A stretch of 64,000 bases of DNA from assembly GCA_035274845.1 (NCBI GenBank), contig DATENU010000008.1, forward strand, positions 1 through 64,000, given 5' to 3'. The first letter of the stretch is position 1, and every line of letters starts with the position of its first letter. Source of the stretch: Chthoniobacterales bacterium. Lineage in GTDB: Bacteria; Verrucomicrobiota; Verrucomicrobiia; Chthoniobacterales; UBA10450. The notes below the pieces were generated by a model. The model was given only the letters and a program-made list of their open reading frames with translations, was not told the origin of the DNA and ran no database searches. The translations under genes and the position numbers were made by a program. Shown one piece after another: positions 30,304 through 63,951 of this stretch.

Positions 30304-30842
30304 CTCAAATGGCGAGAAAGCCGGCGGCGGCTACGGCATGATAGACCGCACTCCGGGCACGTTACACGAAGACCGGAGTGGGGTCATCCGCCGTCGCGTC
30401 CTGGCTGGCCGAGGCTGCGTCCCCACAACTTGATGGCTTTACCCTGTTAGGAATATAGAGCGCCGGGAGGCGCGAAGGATTAAAGCCCGGAGGGAGCGTA
30501 GCGAACTCCGGGGGAAAAGAACGGAACCACCCCAAAGAACCCCTGAAAGGGGTGACGGATGCCGCGCATTGTCGGGGGCCAACGGAATCTCGGAAACGTC
30601 GCCTGGTTTGCTTTGTTCTCGATCCGTCGCCCCTTCGGGGCTCGTTTCATTGAGACGCAAACCCCGGAGTTTCGCTGCGCTTCACTCCGGGCTTTTATTC
30701 CGACGTCCCTTCGGGACTAAGGGCTTGTCGCAGTTGTTTCGAGATAGCAGCCCTTTTCGATTTCCCTGCGGGACGCGTTAGAGCGACGCAACTCGGTGGA
30801 CGTGCCGATCCAAACTTGACGGCTTTAGGCCGTCAGTGTTCC
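30304..30842. repeat. Gene-free cluster of dispersed palindromes
   Basis: No gene is seen. The main units are CCCGGAGGGAGCGTAGCGAAC (30486), CCCCTGAAAGGGGTGACGG (30541), CGCCCCTTCGGGGCTCG (30630), CCCCGGAGTTTCGCTGCGCT (30662) with its partner CACTCCGGGCTTTTA, and TTGACGGCTTTAGGCCGTCA (30817). The same units in the same order recur near 52.7 kb and 60.4-60.9 kb. Confidence 0.7.
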
Positions 30843-39223: not shown

Positions 39224-39249
39224 AGCTCTTTGCGTTAGCGGTTCGCAAA
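39224..39249 (+). repeat. Left edge repeat of the 39.2-43.75 kb island
   Basis: AGCTCTTT (39224-39231), then GCGGTTCGCAAA (39238-39249). The 12-mer recurs exactly at 43729-43740, and AGCTCTTT recurs at 43742-43749. In the left copy CTTTGCG and CGCAAAG also form a hairpin. Confidence 0.55.
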
Positions 39250-39303
39250 GCCGCACTTCTTTCTCAACACGCACGTAGTTGATCCAGCAGGAGACCCCTC
39301 TCT

Positions 39304-39621
39304 ATGACGCAGAGTTACGAATTTGAGATCATTGCCATAGCTCCAGACACGGCGGCGGATATTGCACAAAAAATTATGCCCGCCATTAAGGACGGCCTTC
39401 GCGAACATGGCCATGAATCTTTGTTAGAGGATCGGGAAATCCAAGTGGATCAGAAAGAGAATTTCCCGGACATGGACTATCACACGGTGATAATCCTCGT
39501 TCACGTCGCCACGAACATTGCATATGATGTTTTCAAGACGTATGCGATTCCCCAGCTACGAAAGCTCGGCGAAGTTCGAGAACCGAAGCAAAAGTCAGAT
39601 GAGCGAAGAGCTGACGGGTAG
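39304..39621 (+). CDS. Small protein of unknown function, first gene of the island
   Basis: A 105-residue protein with an AGGAGA ribosome site nine bases before the ATG. It starts with a beta strand (YEFEIIAIAP), continues through a charged helix, and has a hydrophobic segment YHTVIILVHVATNIAYDVF near residues 60-80. The tail is Lys/Arg/Glu-rich. I recognise no family. It is followed after 14 bp by a 337-residue protein, and all four island genes point the same way. It is the sort of small component that often precedes an ATPase in conflict systems, which is an impression only. Confidence 0.65.
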   Translation: MTQSYEFEIIAIAPDTAADIAQKIMPAIKDGLREHGHESLLEDREIQVDQKENFPDMDYHTVIILVHVATNIAYDVFKTYAIPQLRKLGEVREPKQKSDERRADG

Positions 39622-39635
39622 CGATCGGGCTGCCG

Positions 39636-40649
39636 ATGCATATACGGCACAAAGCGAAACTCAGCGCGTATGTGCTGGCATGCGAAGGATTACACAAAGT
39701 CCTCCCTGATCTCTATACTGCGGCACAAGATACTAACGACTCTCGCCTTAACGTATTGGGCTTGATTGGTGCCTTCGAGATTCGAGTCCAAGAGTTCTTC
39801 GGCAGCTGTAAAGAAACTGATCACGCAGCGGCGGCTTTCCGGTTGGCGCAAAAAGTATCCGAACTGGGCGATCTCGCCCGGGATCTGAACGCAGAGGCGG
39901 GAGCAATATGGGATCGATATTCTATCGCATTGAAAGACAAGATACCCGCTTGGAATTTTGTGGCGCATGTCCAAGAACTACATGATGTGGGACGCGGCCT
40001 CGCGCGCGAATTTTTTGCCAATTGTGCGCCCCTGCTTGGCCGCCTGAAAGTTGATTGTCGCTGTCAAGTAAGGTGCAACGAATCAGAACGGTCTATCCCC
40101 CCGATGTTATTTAGCCATTCGAGCGCATTGATTGAGGCAATCTTTTCGTTCGAGTCCAACGAGCCACACTTTCGGTGGTACGTAGCGTTACCTTTCAGAT
40201 TTCTACACGAGTACACCGCACATATCTTCGCAATCGACACGCGCTATCAAGTTTTCAGCGATGGTTGGATGTTAGTCGCCGCCTCACGATTCCTCGAGCG
40301 ACGTTGGCTAGCAGCGGATGGTGAATTCCCCCTCTCAGAAGACCAAGTATATGTTTTTCGGAAAGCCCTTGAGCATATGTTATCGCCGGTTTCCCAACGG
40401 GGAATACGTGTGGCGCGGCTATTTGAAGCGATTGTGGAGTCCGAGGGACGAGCGGTGCTTTTCGTAGAAACTACCGATGCTCTGTGTAGCCTGGAAAACG
40501 CCGAGCCTCTGGCACGATTAGAGTACACCGCGCGCTTCTTGAGAAACCTCGAGAGGCTGTTTTCCACGCGGGACGGACGGAATCATGTCCGCCGCTTAAC
40601 GACGGTTAATGGTGAGGAGTTTTTGAGGGTCGTTACTTTGCAATTTTAG
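39636..40649 (+). CDS. Unknown protein with HEYxxH motif
   Basis: A 337-residue protein of unknown family. The centre contains FRFLHEYTAHIFAID (HEYTAH at 191-196) followed by VFSDGWMLVAASRFLERRW (Asp209 onward). An HExxxH pattern with a downstream acid is compatible with a metal site, as in some metallo-hydrolases, but it is not the classical HExxH zincin. The N-terminal 130 residues are helical and acidic, with a cysteine-rich patch (CRCQVRC, 141-147). It lies 14 bp after the 105-residue gene and about 100 bp before a winged-helix gene. Codon usage is more AT-rich at third positions than in the flanks. Confidence 0.65.
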   Translation: MHIRHKAKLSAYVLACEGLHKVLPDLYTAAQDTNDSRLNVLGLIGAFEIRVQEFFGSCKETDHAAAAFRLAQKVSELGDLARDLNAEAGAIWDRYSIALKDKIPAWNFVAHVQELHDVGRGLAREFFANCAPLLGRLKVDCRCQVRCNESERSIPPMLFSHSSALIEAIFSFESNEPHFRWYVALPFRFLHEYTAHIFAIDTRYQVFSDGWMLVAASRFLERRWLAADGEFPLSEDQVYVFRKALEHMLSPVSQRGIRVARLFEAIVESEGRAVLFVETTDALCSLENAEPLARLEYTARFLRNLERLFSTRDGRNHVRRLTTVNGEEFLRVVTLQF

Positions 40650-40751
40650 TCACCTGAGCATGAAAGCTGCTTAGAATCGTGGCTCGGATGAACTTTTCAC
40701 TTGTTTCTTGCTCAGAAGAGCATCTACTCTCACGCCATGCAAAGGGCTGAC

Positions 40752-41582
40752 ATGAACAGAGTGCGGGTCGCCGTCCGACAAATAGCGTTGGACGGGAAGC
40801 CCTTTACCGCGTTCGACATCCAACGTCGGACGGGTTTGAACATTGAGAGTATTCGGACCGAGATTCAGCGTCTGCGAAAAGGTGGCTTTCTGGATACGAG
40901 TACGTCAAAGACACAGCCGGCGGAGCGTGGTCCTGGAGCCCCTGCGGCACTGTACTCCCTGACGCCGGACCCCGCACGAATTCAAGAGCTCCGTGGAACT
41001 GTTGCTTCGTTTTATCTTTCGGTACCCGTGGCGCGAACATCCCGGCCGACGAGTGAACACTTTATCTCAGCGCGACATGCACTGAACGATGCAACAAAGG
41101 CTATGAACTCCGAAGAACGGGAAAACCTTCTTGCGACCGCAGAGTTGGAACTACAGGCAGCTTGGCTATCGGAAGGCGATGGAGGTGCGACTGAGGAATT
41201 GAAGGCGCACCTTCTATTCGAATCAGCCAGACTGAAACTCCTGCACGAGGACTATTCCGACGCGGAAATGCAGTTCGCACACTGCCGAGACGTTTTCGTA
41301 GAGCACGGGGATTATGACCACGCCTTGTTGGCAGATGACAATGTCTTGGCGTGCGAAATCAAAAAATTGACTGAACGCGAAAAATTATGCCTTGCAACGC
41401 TTAACACATTGCGGGGCAGAACTGCGAGCCCGCTCGCCTTAGCTGTTTTGGAGGCAGCCCAGTCTTTAGAGTCGGCAGAAGAAGTGCGGCTCGATGACTA
41501 TTATGTGGGCAATGATATCTCTCGCCAAGAATTTCGCCATTATTTCGGTGAACTCGAAGTTTGTACTGCGGCATTGTCGTAG
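40752..41582 (+). CDS. Winged-helix protein with helical-repeat C-terminus
   Basis: About 276 residues. Residues 1-48 look like a winged helix-turn-helix (RVAVRQIALDGKPFTAFDIQ, TGLNIESIRTEIQRLRKGGF), so DNA binding and regulation are plausible. After an unstructured Pro-rich link the rest is helical and acidic with TPR-like features (HALNDATKAMNSEERENLLA, LLFESARLKLLHEDYSDAEM). ATG at 40752 is chosen because AAAGGG precedes it by six bases; ATG 40737 and TTG 40701 are alternatives. The stop is 3 bp before the ATPase start, so the two are certainly co-transcribed. Confidence 0.7.
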   Translation: MNRVRVAVRQIALDGKPFTAFDIQRRTGLNIESIRTEIQRLRKGGFLDTSTSKTQPAERGPGAPAALYSLTPDPARIQELRGTVASFYLSVPVARTSRPTSEHFISARHALNDATKAMNSEERENLLATAELELQAAWLSEGDGGATEELKAHLLFESARLKLLHEDYSDAEMQFAHCRDVFVEHGDYDHALLADDNVLACEIKKLTEREKLCLATLNTLRGRTASPLALAVLEAAQSLESAEEVRLDDYYVGNDISRQEFRHYFGELEVCTAALS

Positions 41583-41585
41583 CTT

Positions 41586-43667
41586 GTGATCTTTCGGTCT
41601 AAAATACCGCCCTTCATCGTCTTCTATTCGTATAAAGGCGGCGTAGGCCGTAGTATGGCTCTAATCAACGTGGCGGCGATATTGGTGGGTCGTGGCAGAC
41701 GCGTGTTGGCAATCGATTTGGATTTGGAAGCCCCCGGCATCTCCTATCTGTTACAGCAGAAGCATGCCGGACCGACGGCAGGCTTTGTTGACTTGCTATC
41801 GGATGTTTTTCTAGAAAAAGCTGAGTCAGCGATGGCAAATGTCAAAGATCCGCAGGCCATCCTTCGCTACACTCACATATTGGATGTCCCAGAGGAGGTT
41901 CGTAGCAAACCGGGTGGAGGATTGATGATTATGCCGGCGGGGAGGCTAGATGCTGATTACGAAAGGAAACGCCAAGCCATTGATCTTCATCGACTCTATC
42001 AAGAGGGTAAAGGCAAATCGCTTATGATGCGCCTACGTGAACTAATTATCAGTAGTCGTCAGTTTGATTACGTACTTATTGACTCACGTACTGGCTTTTC
42101 TGACGAAGCGGGAATCAGCATTCGCGATCTAGGCGACCACTTACTTATTCTTCATGGCTTAAATAGCCAAAATATTGAGGGCACCGCGCGTGTGATCGAA
42201 CAGATTCGCAAGACACTTGCGCAGAAGAGACGTAGCAATGTTTCAGTTCCATCCGGTGTGCGCCTTGACGACGGTTCGCGAGAAACAAGTGTGCGAAAAC
42301 AAAATGTCGAGATCGATTTCGTTGCCAGTCCAGTTCCCATCGGCGAGGATATTTTTCGGCGCAGGCGCATTGAAGAGGCAAACGATCGGTTTACGTCTGC
42401 GTGGGGCAAACTGATTAGCGTACGTCTCTCCATACCGTATCATCCGCGTCTCGCCCTAGATGACGAGCCCGTCTTGTTTCATCAGACGGAAGGGGGACTC
42501 TATTTGGCCTATATGGCCATCGAAGAGCGCGTCCGGGAAATGAGCGGTGATACAACGGCAATTTGGTCTACACGCGCTCAGGAAGCGATCGCTGCCGGAA
42601 ATCACGAGGACGCGATTCAATACTTTAGAGAGGCTGCAGACCTGGGGGCGAAACCGACCTCTTTGATTATGTCGGCTTGCAGTGGACTCGTTGGAAAAGA
42701 GGAATTCACCGCTTATTGGAAGCTACTGGAAGAGTTATCTCCTGGCAGAAATCCTCTTGAACTTCTCGTTGGCATTCAACATTTCGAACAACAAAGAAGA
42801 TATGAAGATGTAGAGAACTTATATCGTGAGGCAATTGAACGATATCCGGCCGACGAAAGCTTTAAAATACCGTTTGCAAATTTTCTCCGGCGGTATCGCA
42901 ATAAGCCGCAAGAAGCGGCTCAACTTTATCGCCGCGCATTAGAGCGGTCACCTGAGAATGTAACGCTACTCTCGGATCTTGCGGGATTATTATGGCGATC
43001 TTTGGGCATGCAGGATGAGGCAGAAGGCCTCTTACGCACGGCTATCAAGAATCATCCCCATAATGCTCGATTGCTTAGTCACTTGGCTAATTTGCTATGG
43101 TACGCTCGGAGTGATTATGAACAGGCGGAAGAGCTTTTCGAGGACGCATATCGTCTACAGTCCAACGACGAGATTGTGGTAGGGCGTCTTGCAAACTTCC
43201 TCTGGAAGGTCAAGAAGGACTTTGCCCGAGCCGAAAGACTGTATGCTAAAGCTGTCAATCTCACGCCAGATGACGGCGACAATCTTTGTAATTATGCCGG
43301 ATTTCTGTTGGCTCAGCGTCGTGATACGGAGCAAATGCTGCTTCGCGCATGGGCTGTGTCATTTAATCGTCGGGATCAAACGACTGCCGAGATTGCTTTC
43401 TATCGGGGCGTGCAACTCCGTATAATAGGCAAACAGGATACTTTACCGCTCTCTTACTTGAAAACCCTGTTGCGGTTAGAATTTCCTCGAATGCCTTGGT
43501 CTTTTGAAGAGGTTTTACGCATAGCAGGAGAGAAGTTCACCGCGCAGATTTTCGATTTGTACCGAACCTTGGCAGCTGCAATCTTAGATCCAAGCCGCCT
43601 CCAGGATTTGGAGCGGTCACCTCATTGGAGAGAGTTAAAAGAGCAACCGATATCGGACGATATCTAA
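41586..43667 (+). CDS. KGGVGRS-motif P-loop ATPase fused to TPR repeats
   Basis: A 693-residue protein with a ParA/MinD-like (SIMIBI) ATPase at residues 8-320. The Walker A reads YKGGVGRS (16-23), a variant with Arg in the deviant motif seen in KGGVGR-type ATPases. Walker A' (DLDLEAPG) and LIDSRTGFSDEAG follow. From about 340 to 600 there are TPR-like repeats (NHEDAIQYFREA, YEDVENLYREAI, KPQEAAQLYRRALERSPENV, and others). Such proteins occur in Actinobacteria next to radical-SAM or TIR genes and may serve as NTP-driven scaffolds. The start is GTG 41586. It is the last gene of the island. Its function is unknown. Confidence 0.8.
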   Translation: MIFRSKIPPFIVFYSYKGGVGRSMALINVAAILVGRGRRVLAIDLDLEAPGISYLLQQKHAGPTAGFVDLLSDVFLEKAESAMANVKDPQAILRYTHILDVPEEVRSKPGGGLMIMPAGRLDADYERKRQAIDLHRLYQEGKGKSLMMRLRELIISSRQFDYVLIDSRTGFSDEAGISIRDLGDHLLILHGLNSQNIEGTARVIEQIRKTLAQKRRSNVSVPSGVRLDDGSRETSVRKQNVEIDFVASPVPIGEDIFRRRRIEEANDRFTSAWGKLISVRLSIPYHPRLALDDEPVLFHQTEGGLYLAYMAIEERVREMSGDTTAIWSTRAQEAIAAGNHEDAIQYFREAADLGAKPTSLIMSACSGLVGKEEFTAYWKLLEELSPGRNPLELLVGIQHFEQQRRYEDVENLYREAIERYPADESFKIPFANFLRRYRNKPQEAAQLYRRALERSPENVTLLSDLAGLLWRSLGMQDEAEGLLRTAIKNHPHNARLLSHLANLLWYARSDYEQAEELFEDAYRLQSNDEIVVGRLANFLWKVKKDFARAERLYAKAVNLTPDDGDNLCNYAGFLLAQRRDTEQMLLRAWAVSFNRRDQTTAEIAFYRGVQLRIIGKQDTLPLSYLKTLLRLEFPRMPWSFEEVLRIAGEKFTAQIFDLYRTLAAAILDPSRLQDLERSPHWRELKEQPISDDI

Positions 43668-43728
43668 GAGCTTTCGCCGTCGCGAGCGCTCACTCCTTCG
43701 TACGGCTGCGAGGGCCCCTAGGGTCTGC

Positions 43729-43749
43729 GCGGTTCGCAAACAGCTCTTT
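43729..43749 (+). repeat. Right edge repeat of the island
   Basis: GCGGTTCGCAAA (43729-43740) and AGCTCTTT (43742-43749), matching the left edge in a different order. Confidence 0.55.
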
Positions 43750-44215: not shown

Positions 44216-44277
44216 CGGATCGAGCGCTCCGTCGCTCGATGAAGGCGTCAAACACCGAGCGACGGATCGCTCGATCC
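44216..44277. repeat. REP-like inverted pair GGATCGAGCG/CGCTCGATCC
   Basis: GGATCGAGCGCTCCGTCGCT (44218) and its inverted, near-identical partner ending CGGATCGCTCGATCC (44264-44278), with a 12-bp spacer. It resembles the GGTGGATCG family at 74-183. Confidence 0.65.
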
Positions 44278-61284: not shown

Positions 61285-61401
61285 CCAGCCGATCCAGCGA
61301 AACCTACCCGTCGTGCGTCCGAAATCTCACATGACCAAATCATTCCGCCTGCGATCAACGCTCGCCTCGGGTAGGCGTCCCTGATCTTATTCTCGTTAGG
61401 C
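61279..61401 (+). other. attC: Integron attC recombination site
   Basis: Left core ATCTAAC (RYYYAAC, 61279-61285) and right core GTTAGGC (GTTRRRY, 61395-61401). Arms 61279-61310 and 61368-61401 are an imperfect inverted repeat, including CCTACCCG/CGGGTAGG and GATCCAG/CTGATC; the spacer is 57 nt. The stop of gene 61027 overlaps the left core and gene 61408 starts 7 bp after the right core. Confidence 0.75.
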
Positions 61402-61407
61402 CTATAC

Positions 61408-62244
61408 GTGCACCTCGGTAGTTACAACGCAGCCAAACGGCACTACGATGCTTTTCGCGATCTATCGCCTGCGGAGGTCGAACAGCACACAGCTTTTACT
61501 CGTTGCCTTACCGAAGCCCGATCGCGTCTTTCGTTGTTCCGGATGCTCGACCGCAATTACACGGACTGGCGGAACTACCTTAATCGCCTTCTCTCGGCGG
61601 ATTTCCACGAGGATGTCGATGTTTCCGAGGAGCTCAATCGGCTACTGCTCAATTATCTGACGTTCGCCTACACGATCCAGAAACACTTCGCCGTTTCGTT
61701 CAGACAACGATTCAAGAAGCAGCAGGCCACGCTCAAGAAATACTTCGATTTCGTTGATCGCCTTTGTGCCGCGTGTTGGCCATTTGCCTTCCTCCTCGAT
61801 TATCGCGGCTACGTCCAGCACGTCGGACTTGGGATCAGCGCCAATAGCCGAACCGCGAACGATACATCTGTGCGCATCAAGATCACTGCTAGCAGTAAGA
61901 CCCTTTTGGCCGAGAGTCGCGGTTGGAAGCGCTCTGGTCTTACGGTCGAGAGGGGCGATCTGGACTTGGTCGCCATTTTGAAAGAGTTTCATGTCCAGAT
62001 GATACAGAGCTATGCCACATTCGTAGCGAAGACTTTTTTCCCTGAGCTGCATCCGGCAGAGGAGTTTTACGCCAGCCTTACACGAGAGATTCAGGAGCGA
62101 CACCCGAATGCCCGCATGATCTTCTTCACCAAAAAGCCGGAATTTACGCCTGGAGATGGAGGCAAGATGTCTCTGAACATGAACATCATAATGGTGCCGA
62201 ACGATGTATTCGGTGAACTTGGAATCAAAATCGAACGGGCCTAA
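61408..62244 (+). CDS. Unknown protein, putative cassette gene 2
   Basis: A 278-residue protein of unknown family, starting GTG. The N-terminal half is helical with many aromatic and basic residues (YTDWRNYLNRLLSADF, RFKKQQATLKKYFDFVDRLC). The middle is beta-rich (GYVQHVGLGISANSR, TSVRIKITASSKTLL). It starts 7 bp after attC 61279-61401, and its stop TAA lies in GCCTAAC (62239-62245), another left-core sequence. It therefore has the layout of a gene cassette. Confidence 0.7.
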   Translation: MHLGSYNAAKRHYDAFRDLSPAEVEQHTAFTRCLTEARSRLSLFRMLDRNYTDWRNYLNRLLSADFHEDVDVSEELNRLLLNYLTFAYTIQKHFAVSFRQRFKKQQATLKKYFDFVDRLCAACWPFAFLLDYRGYVQHVGLGISANSRTANDTSVRIKITASSKTLLAESRGWKRSGLTVERGDLDLVAILKEFHVQMIQSYATFVAKTFFPELHPAEEFYASLTREIQERHPNARMIFFTKKPEFTPGDGGKMSLNMNIIMVPNDVFGELGIKIERA

Positions 62245-62291
62245 CCATGCGATGCAGCGGTAAGTATATACTTGACGCAGCGCACCGCTGG
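62239..62291 (+). other. Possible truncated attC (left half)
   Basis: GCCTAAC fits RYYYAAC at 62239-62245 and overlaps the stop of 61408-62244. CAGCGGT (62255) pairs with ACCGCTG (62285). A right core GTTRRRY is not found downstream, so the site looks incomplete. Confidence 0.4.
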
Positions 62292-63192
62292 TAACGATAG
62301 TGTTGCTTCGGAGTCATCCGGTCAAGTTCTCCCGCCGTGGGTTGAAAGTCCGTTCCGGCTCTGGAGCTGGTGGGATATGAACAAATTTAGCGCCGGGATT
62401 TTCGTTAATATTGGATCTTCGCTCCACTGGTTTTCAACATTGGCAGAAAGAGGCGAGTGGAGCGATGCAATGCGGGATACCGCTAACAGGTTCGGGGTGT
62501 CCATTTCAGATGATCTAAAGGAAATTGGCTGCGATGTGGCAGCAGGGGCTGCGCTTCGTTTCGCCAGCGAGATTCCCCATATTGGATCAAAATATAGGCC
62601 GCTCACCGATTTGAAGCCGAGAGCCGAGGAGCTTCAAAACATCATCTATGATGAAATGCGTAGGCATTTATTCTTTTGGGTTCCACCTGGCAAAGCTCGT
62701 TACTATGAATTGCCGGATAGAGTCGAAAACTGGGATGATACAGAGCGTGTCTTGCACAACCTCATTTCCCGACGTTTCAATAAAGCACTCAATGAGATAA
62801 GCGAGGCGCGTCGGTCCTATGCACTAGACCGCAATACCGGATGTGTTTTCCATCTGATGCGCGCTTGCGAATCTGGAATCAAGTCGCTGTATAAAACGCT
62901 GGGCATTACAGCGCCCAGGTTATCGGATAGCTGGGGCAATTTGCTTAAACCGATGGATACGCAACTGGCCTTGCCCCCCAACAAGAGGCATGGCGACTGG
63001 GCAACGCACCCCAACTTCTTCGATCACGCGACAAATGACGTTCGCGCCATTAAACGGGCTTGGCGGGACACCACCATGCACATTGAATCTGATTACGATC
63101 AGGAAGGGGCGTTCAAAGCTCTAAACGCAGTGACCAGTTTTTTCGTGCACCTCGCCGAGCATCTTGACCAAGACGGAAAGTTTTATCAGTGA
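62272..63192 (+). CDS. Unknown protein with HEPN-like R-x4-H motif
   Basis: Up to 306 residues. The start TTG at 62272 lies inside the possible attC hairpin; ATG 62377 (MNKFSAGIF) is the conservative alternative. The C-terminal third is helical with VFHLMRACESGIKSLYKTLG and later RAWRDTTMHIESDYDQEGAF, where R-D-T-T-M-H fits the R-x4-6-H motif of HEPN domains, often RNases in toxin and abortive-infection systems. This is a motif-level guess. The gene has visibly lower GC than the backbone. It is convergent with the next small gene, overlapping by 7 bp. Confidence 0.6.
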   Translation: MTQRTAGNDSVASESSGQVLPPWVESPFRLWSWWDMNKFSAGIFVNIGSSLHWFSTLAERGEWSDAMRDTANRFGVSISDDLKEIGCDVAAGAALRFASEIPHIGSKYRPLTDLKPRAEELQNIIYDEMRRHLFFWVPPGKARYYELPDRVENWDDTERVLHNLISRRFNKALNEISEARRSYALDRNTGCVFHLMRACESGIKSLYKTLGITAPRLSDSWGNLLKPMDTQLALPPNKRHGDWATHPNFFDHATNDVRAIKRAWRDTTMHIESDYDQEGAFKALNAVTSFFVHLAEHLDQDGKFYQ

Positions 63193-63335
63193 GCCCGCTT
63201 TTTCACGGCCTTGCGATCCCTGCGATACTCCGCTTCGCGCCGGCTCAGTTCTGCTTTAGGAACGGACAGGATTTTCCGCATTGCGTTCTTGAAACGCTCG
63301 GACGGTTTTTGCTCGGTCGCCTTGTCCTGTTGCAC
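63186..63335 (-). CDS. Small basic protein (49 residues)
   Basis: GTG start (63335) giving VQQDKATEQKPSERFKNAMR and ending with REAEYRRDRKAVKKRAH. The pattern (ERF.NAMRKILSVPKAEL..REAEY) is that of a widespread family of small unknown proteins, often next to toxin-antitoxin genes. It is in frame with, and 30 bp after, the stop of the 117-residue gene upstream. Too short for simple gene finders. Confidence 0.55.
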   Translation of the reverse strand: MQQDKATEQKPSERFKNAMRKILSVPKAELSRREAEYRRDRKAVKKRAH

Positions 63336-63365
63336 GGCAGCACGATAAGCCGAAACGATTGTCGG

Positions 63366-63719
63366 TCAATTTACCGGCTCTTCCCAAACAGGCATAAGAA
63401 AAGTGTGCCCGTCGCCACCGAGGTGATTGTCAGCATTGCGTTCCGGCAACGGTTCATCGGTTTCCTCGAAAGAGGGGCCATCAAGAGCATATTGGCGATG
63501 CTTGCCGTGTATCTTCAATGTCTCGCTGCCAAGATCGACGTGATTTTGCGCATCGGTAAACGGCTCGTGTCTGTAATTCTCCGCTCTACCCATCTGAATC
63601 AAGGACTTCCCCAAGGGGAGTTTAAGGTCGGCGGCAATCAGTTCATCGGTTGTTACCGTTCGGAGAATCATCTTGTTACCGTTTGGGCCTGTTGCCCTGA
63701 CTTTCCAATGTTTTGTCAT
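63366..63719 (-). CDS. Small unknown protein (117 residues)
   Basis: A hydrophilic protein starting TKHWKVRATGPNGNKM and ending PVWEEPVN. The opening strand pattern WKVRATGPNG is seen in small phage-like or accessory proteins. No domain is recognised. It may be co-transcribed with the 49-residue gene that follows in the same frame. Its start overlaps, on the other strand, the start of 63718-63951 (CATG). Confidence 0.5.
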   Translation of the reverse strand: MTKHWKVRATGPNGNKMILRTVTTDELIAADLKLPLGKSLIQMGRAENYRHEPFTDAQNHVDLGSETLKIHGKHRQYALDGPSFEETDEPLPERNADNHLGGDGHTFLMPVWEEPVN

Positions 63720-63951
63720 GTTGATTAGTGAGTTGGAAACCAGCCTAAGAGAAATTCGTAATTCGGTCGGGGACGTGCCCGTCTATTGCGATGATTCCGC
63801 CCCCGGTTTGCCCCCGCATTGCTACCAGTGCAAGGGCGTGACGGTCAATCCCGATATGGGGCACGGTTCATTTGCCGTTCTTCGACCGTTTGCCGCGTCC
63901 CTGCCTAGGTTTGTGGAATCGGAAGGGAATCACCGCCCCCAAGATCAATGA
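63718..63951 (+). CDS. Small unknown protein
   Basis: A 77-residue frame: MLISELETSLREIRNSVGDV, then PVYCDDSAPG and CYQCKGVTVNPDMGHGSFAV. The alternating helix and strand pattern resembles small phage-type proteins with a 'GDVPV' segment. A further frame (63948 on) overlaps its stop by 4 bp. The last 20 residues look less protein-like. Confidence 0.4.
   Translation: MLISELETSLREIRNSVGDVPVYCDDSAPGLPPHCYQCKGVTVNPDMGHGSFAVLRPFAASLPRFVESEGNHRPQDQ

What the first reader, a model, noticed from the sequence alone, without database searches (positions are those of the whole stretch)
39224..43749. Four-gene island: candidate undescribed conflict or signalling system
Small protein, HEYxxH protein, winged-helix/helical protein and KGGVGRS ATPase-TPR run in one direction with tight spacing. 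Their base composition is more AT-rich at places (the 60 bases 42781-42840 hold 20 G/C) than the neighbouring backbone. KGGVGR-type ATPases with TPRs occur in poorly characterised, variable loci. No known defence system has this exact set as far as I recall.
Basis: partly seen in the sequence, partly recalled or inferred. Interest (0 to 1): 0.85.

Follow-up and report, generated by a model that had tools for sequence, protein, structure and literature searches.

The report
Acquired KGGVGR-ATPase island with orphan partners
A foreign-looking block of four co-directional genes sits among housekeeping genes; one gene belongs to a known family of ATPases found in bacterial conflict-type loci with ever-changing partners, and the other three have no detectable relatives, so it is probably a new partner combination of a known kind of system rather than a wholly new one.

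Summary
The four-gene run is real: 105, 337, 293 and 693 aa, gaps 14, 51 and 3 bp, third-position GC 48-54% against 71-80% in flanking genes. A same-family genome has Ku, DUF72 and DoxX adjacent without it, and a 12-bp direct repeat brackets it, so it is most likely an acquired unit. Gene 4 is a true KGGVGR ATPase with TPRs (NF047398, 162 bits, cut-off 90). Gene 3 starts with a winged helix. Gene 1 models as a ferredoxin-like fold (single-sequence, pLDDT 71).

Two first-stage claims fail. 'HEYxxH' is HEYTAH, that is HExxxH, not the zincin HExxH; it arises in 3% of shuffles of the protein. And the four genes were not found together elsewhere: genes 1-3 have no relative in 115 other loci, nor (gene 2) in about 1,370 genomes, plasmids or phages.

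The ATPase nests in a clade whose other members mostly carry a different, undescribed pair of genes (A, B) in a tight operon; more distant ones pair with MqsA-type antitoxins, TIR or HEPN-like proteins. Best reading: a KGGVGR-ATPase conflict module whose partners were exchanged. Function is inferred, not shown; it is not in a defence island.

The parts
39238..39249 (+). left copy of 12-bp direct repeat GCGGTTCGCAAA bracketing the island
   Evidence: only 3 exact copies in the 4.5 Mb genome, two of them here; a shared word this long between the two flanks arose in 2 of 2000 Markov shuffles. Post-hoc observation.
39304..39621 (+). P1, 105 aa small protein; single-sequence AlphaFold2 model is a beta-alpha-beta-beta-alpha-beta (ferredoxin-like) fold
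   Evidence: ORF; pLDDT 71, pTM 0.56; Foldseek best hits are ferredoxin-like/PII-like proteins, none below E 1e-3; weak PADLOC PDC-S02 match E 0.0016; no Pfam match at or near cut-off, no NCBIfam, PHROGs, PDB or plasmid match
39636..40649 (+). P2, 337 aa orphan protein; contains HEYTAH (HExxxH) at residue 191, no HExxH
   Evidence: ORF; motif scan; no family or structure match; AlphaFold2 model unusable, pLDDT 37; no relatives
40701..41582 (+). P3, 293 aa (or 281 from ATG 40737): N-terminal winged helix-turn-helix plus helical region; tightly coupled to P4 (3 bp)
   Evidence: ORF; similarity of residues 9-81 (numbered from ATG 40737) to Lrp/AsnC-type regulators in PDB, E 0.004; phrog_1123 E 9.8e-4; no relatives among 113 genomes of the class including one of the same genus, plasmids or phages
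41586..43667 (+). P4, 693 aa KGGVGR-variant MinD/ParA-like ATPase domain followed by TPRs
   Evidence: NF047398 E 1.5e-47, 162 bits over cut-off 90; TPR families; PADLOC PDC-M28B E 2.6e-32 over the ATPase domain only; KGGVGR, DxDLEAPG and DSRTG motifs kept
43729..43740 (+). right copy of 12-bp direct repeat GCGGTTCGCAAA

Best explanation
A horizontally acquired conflict-type (most likely anti-phage or abortive) module built on a KGGVGR-variant MinD/ParA-like ATPase. Proposed working: P4 binds nucleotide through its variant P-loop and dimerises, and its TPR arms sense a trigger or hold a partner; P3, whose gene abuts P4 as the HTH partner does in most relatives, ties the complex to DNA, either as operon repressor or as the targeting subunit; on triggering, P4 switches nucleotide state and releases or activates the P1-P2 pair, which takes the effector place that TIR, HEPN-like, MqsA-linked or A/B proteins take in relatives. 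Shown: operon layout, ATPase family and clade, foreign composition, absence from the same place in a same-family genome, different partners within one ATPase clade. Inferred: complex formation, DNA binding, effector role, defence function.
For: P4 is far above the NF047398 cut-off, and only 7 of 289 genomes of the phylum hold such a protein above cut-off: patchy, as expected for accessory conflict genes. The family is catalogued as PDC-M28B; a sampled relative with its HEPN-like partner matches PDC-M28A and M28B almost end to end. Partners immediately upstream of the ATPase in 41 other loci: MqsA antitoxin in 22, TIR in 5. The window ATPase sits inside a starred clade (97/93) of ten rows, seven of them with A-B partners, with an eighth A-B row just outside, yet carries P1-P2-P3, which do not match A or B: partner exchange. 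GC3 shift; no island between Ku and DUF72-DoxX in the same-family genome G167; bracketing repeat. Kaur et al. 2020 (PMC7159879) describe MinD/ParA-like domains and TPRs among effector-side domains of NTP-dependent conflict systems.
Against: No known effector domain could be recognised in P1 or P2. The locus stands alone among housekeeping genes, not in a defence island. The set was not found in any second genome, so there is no evidence from conservation that the four work together. Kaur et al. predict the MinD/ParA-like domains of their systems to be inactive, and the P-loop lysine is Arg in KGGVGR, so ATP hydrolysis is not assured.
Confidence: 0.5

Rival explanations
1. Two adjacent, independently acquired cassettes: P3-P4 (winged helix plus KGGVGR ATPase) is the functional module and P1-P2 are unrelated cargo that happens to lie upstream.
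For: P3-P4 are coupled by 3 bp, P2-P3 by 51-87 bp; the conserved kernel in most relatives is only partner plus ATPase; P1-P2 have no relatives near any sampled ATPase.
Against: All four share direction and composition (GC3 0.48-0.54), all lie inside one repeat-bracketed block, and the nearest ATPase clade also uses two upstream partner genes.
Confidence: 0.25
2. A peptide-processing system working like the FxSxx-COOH loci: P1 as precursor, P2 as HExxH enzyme, P4 as the KGGVGR-TPR partner.
For: Same outline (small protein, motif protein, MinD/ParA-TPR protein) as the stand-alone peptide-processing systems of Kaur et al. 2020.
Against: P2 has no HExxH and no NCBIfam match at E up to 1; P1 does not end in FxSxx and models as a folded domain; no radical-SAM gene and no AP-ATPase in the island.
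Confidence: 0.06
3. A degenerating or orphan genomic island without current function (relic cargo).
For: Three of four genes are orphans; no integrase or transposase within it.
Against: All four frames are intact and tightly arranged, and the ATPase keeps the family motifs.
Confidence: 0.12

Closest known systems
KGGVGR-motif variant ATPases (NF047398 domain)
   Same: ATPase domain over curated cut-off with the family motifs; TPR tail as in several relatives
   Different: Partner genes P1-P3 not seen with any other member sampled
PADLOC candidate module PDC-M28 (HEPN-like A plus KGGVGR ATPase B)
   Same: P4 matches PDC-M28B over the ATPase domain
   Different: Only residues 8-210 match a 438-position model; no M28A partner; a TPR tail instead
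Undescribed A-B-KGGVGR operon found here (L039, L042, L044, L046, L047, L048; A and B also detected in L040, L043)
   Same: Closest ATPases, 38-48% identical, and same clade; ATPase last of a tight co-directional operon
   Different: A and B have no detectable similarity to P1, P2 or P3
MqsA-type antitoxin plus KGGVGR ATPase pairs (e.g. Rhizobium plasmids)
   Same: DNA-binding partner immediately upstream of the ATPase gene
   Different: P3 carries a winged helix without the zinc ribbon and Xre-type HTH; no Pfam match
FxSxx-COOH peptide-processing systems (Kaur et al. 2020, PMC7159879)
   Same: MinD/ParA-like plus TPR component; small protein in the operon
   Different: No HExxH enzyme, no FxSxx peptide, no radical SAM, no AP-ATPase

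Membership tests
KGGVGR-variant ATPase (NF047398) | domain score over the curated cut-off | tested here: met
   162.4 bits against 90
KGGVGR-variant ATPase (NF047398) | KGGVGR P-loop with DxDLEAPG and DSRTG motifs | tested here: met
   alignment A1; positions
KGGVGR-variant ATPase (NF047398) | nucleotide binding or hydrolysis | not testable with these tools
   biochemistry needed
PADLOC PDC-M28 | both components M28A (HEPN-like) and M28B | tested here: not met
   only partial M28B; none of P1-P3 matches M28A
Zincin / alpha-KG HExxH enzyme (P2) | HExxH motif | tested here: not met
   no HE..H in P2; HEYTAH is HExxxH
Peptidase M49 (dipeptidyl peptidase III; HExxxH peptidases, recalled from general knowledge) | HExxxH within an M49 domain | tested here: not met
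   HExxxH present, but no Pfam family matches P2 at E up to 1 and 3% of shuffles hold the motif
FxSxx-COOH peptide-processing system | small protein with C-terminal FxSxx | tested here: not met
   P1 ends PKQKSDERRADG
FxSxx-COOH peptide-processing system | HExxH enzyme, radical SAM, AP-ATPase | tested here: not met
A-B-KGGVGR operon | gene A and gene B upstream of the ATPase | tested here: not met
   profile searches of P1-P4 with A and B models non-significant; hhalign of B against P3 and P2 non-significant
Anti-phage defence system | protects a host against phage | not testable with these tools
   experiment needed
Anti-phage defence system | location in a defence island (frequent, not obligatory) | tested here: not met
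   neighbours are IspH, Ku, BaiN-type flavoprotein, DUF72, DoxX (names from sequence reading)

The most novel reading that the evidence does not exclude
P1, P2 and P3 are three new protein families that together form a previously unseen effector/adaptor set for KGGVGR-ATPase immunity, P2 being a new kind of effector, acquired by replacing the A-B pair of the nearest ATPase relatives.
Probability: 0.25. Interest if true: 0.6.

Novelty: new variant of a known kind. Interest (0 to 1): 0.36.

Why it matters
KGGVGR ATPases recur in candidate defence loci, yet a full-text search for 'KGGVGR' in 5.39 million open papers found nothing relevant. The window plus the A-B operons show one ATPase clade keeping its ATPase while changing partners across several phyla, which makes the role of the shared subunit directly testable by comparing modules. 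On its own, an island seen once is a modest finding.

Tried and rejected
HExxH enzyme / FxSxx-type peptide processing for P2 and P1: pursued, including literature on alpha-KG HExxH enzymes, then dropped when the motif proved to be HExxxH; an earlier neighbour scan of mine for HE..H is for this reason uninformative. M49 peptidase: no family match. Apparent P2 hits: G769 has four stops inside, G726 is E 0.0099 with a stop inside, and the G1073 hit lies in a 159-aa frame overlapping longer reading frames; none taken as a relative. P1 against the N-terminus of the Polymorphobacter partner: 9 residues only. AlphaFold2 on P2 without an alignment: pLDDT 37, not used for any fold search. A or B as remote relatives of P2 or P3: no. 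Same-genus empty site in G1419: synteny with the window ends at about 30.3 kb, so the site was not reached; only the absence of P3 there is shown. Promoter and terminator scans: at chance level.

Full report
What is there. Four co-directional genes lie at 39304-39621 (P1), 39636-40649 (P2), 40701-41582 (P3) and 41586-43667 (P4), with gaps of 14, 51 and 3 bp. Base composition drops from about 0.60 to about 0.50 GC over just this block, and GC3 is 0.48-0.54 against 0.71-0.80 in the neighbours. The flanks hold IspH, Ku, a BaiN-type flavoprotein, a DUF72 protein and DoxX (names from reading the sequences). No tRNA is in the window and no mobility gene is in the block.

Acquired block. In G167, a genome of the same family, the orthologues of Ku (78%), DUF72 (76%) and DoxX (60%) follow one another directly, without the four genes (the 0.46 kb gap is examined). 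The BaiN gene and its 203-aa neighbour, which lie between the island and DUF72 in the window, are also absent from that place in G167, so the comparison does not fix the exact ends. A 12-bp direct repeat, GCGGTTCGCAAA, at 39238-39249 and 43729-43740 brackets the block. It occurs three times in the 4.5 Mb genome, and a shared word of that length between the two flanks arose in 2 of 2000 Markov shuffles. This is suggestive of a defined unit but was noticed after the fact. A same-genus genome (G1419) has no P3.

P4. It scores 162 bits against NF047398, the KGGVGR-variant ATPase domain (cut-off 90), and carries TPRs. KGGVGR, DxDLEAPG and DSRTG are kept, as across the aligned relatives. Only 7 of 289 genomes of the phylum hold such a protein over the cut-off. 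The PADLOC candidate PDC-M28B matches the ATPase domain; a full M28 pair in another genome of the class (L010) has a HEPN-like partner (the HEPN label is from reading the sequence).

Partners of the ATPase elsewhere. Of 41 immediately upstream partners scanned, 22 match the MqsA antitoxin family and 5 match TIR. The ten loci nearest to P4 (38-48% identity) group with it: nine of them with P4 at support 97/93, and the tenth, with one more distant row, at 95/86. Eight of those ten loci carry two undescribed genes, A (about 265 aa) and B (about 265-300 aa), before the ATPase, at spacings of -4 to 12 and 3 to 20 bp in the six loci measured. A and B were found in those eight loci and nowhere else among 115 loci, and have no Pfam, PADLOC, NCBIfam or, for A, PDB match. 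P4 is nested among these ATPases but has P1-P2-P3 in place of A-B. The most economical reading is an exchange of partners around a retained ATPase.

P3 begins with a winged helix (Lrp/AsnC-type regulators, E 0.004; phrog_1123, E 1e-3). Its place directly before the ATPase matches that of the HTH partner in most relatives, which is the basis for proposing a DNA-binding adaptor or repressor role.

P1 gives a usable single-sequence model (best pLDDT 71; the five models range from 49 to 71): beta-alpha-beta-beta-alpha-beta, with weak ferredoxin-like and PII-like matches. The fold is too common to name a function. A PDC-S02 match at E 0.0016 is a lead only.

P2 is an orphan. HExxxH turns up in 3% of shuffled copies of P2 and in 24 of 1294 reading frames of similar length in the fetched loci, so it is not evidence of a metal site. 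The structure model is unusable.

Co-conservation. P1, P2 and P3 have no relative in any of 115 loci. P2 has none in the genomes of seven searches, about 1,370 in all, drawn from its own phylum, five other phyla and the 18 genomes of selected ATPase loci, nor in plasmids or phages. P1 has none in 195 genomes or in plasmids, and P3 none in 113 genomes, plasmids or phages. Limits: the genome-wide scan for P2 finds only relatives sharing one of six exact peptides, metagenomes could not be scanned, and P1 is short. The result means rare or fast-evolving, not unique.

Mechanism. I commit to a KGGVGR-ATPase conflict module: P4 as nucleotide-switched, TPR-bearing hub, P3 as DNA-tethering adaptor or repressor, P1-P2 as effector side. 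Family, clade, layout, foreign origin and the difference in partners are shown; interaction, switching and defence are inferred. The main rival is that only P3-P4 form the module. Interest is moderate: a new combination of a known kind, with one robust by-product, the A-B-ATPase operon.

Noticed in passing
L039 5357-8973, L042 8346-12001, L044 7262-9996, L046 8345-12109, L047 8327-11887, L048 8178-11656 (also parts of L040, L043): Conserved, apparently undescribed three-gene operon A-B-KGGVGR ATPase in Verrucomicrobiota, Lentisphaerota, Thermodesulfobacteriota, Rhodothermota and Pseudomonadota genomes; A and B match no Pfam, NCBIfam or PADLOC family. Gene A has a conserved PTVADAG...WG...PEVVH C-terminal half.
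   Followed up: partly
L013 530-3201 and L014 397-3013: In two genomes of the window's phylum a 123-aa protein, an MqsA-like zinc-ribbon/HTH protein and a KGGVGR ATPase form an operon; the 123-aa protein of L013 matches no PADLOC family.
   Followed up: partly
L005 6324-8830: A Polymorphobacter plasmid pairs a PDC-M06B protein with a KGGVGR ATPase, near two tyrosine recombinases: another partner combination.
   Followed up: no
window 61400-63730: A second stretch of low GC (0.50-0.55) with three + strand ORFs of 278, 306 and 179 aa near the window end, followed beyond it by what reads like an IS1595-type transposase (C8 64000-64882).
   Followed up: no
window 44217-44277: 25-nt inverted repeat, 92% complementary with 11 nt between the arms, just beyond the island near the 3' end of the BaiN-type gene.
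   Followed up: no
G1419:C20 (L188, L197) against window 3.7-30.3 kb: Same-genus genome is collinear at about 77% DNA identity up to window position 30310 and then diverges, so a rearrangement breakpoint lies between there and the Ku gene.
   Followed up: partly
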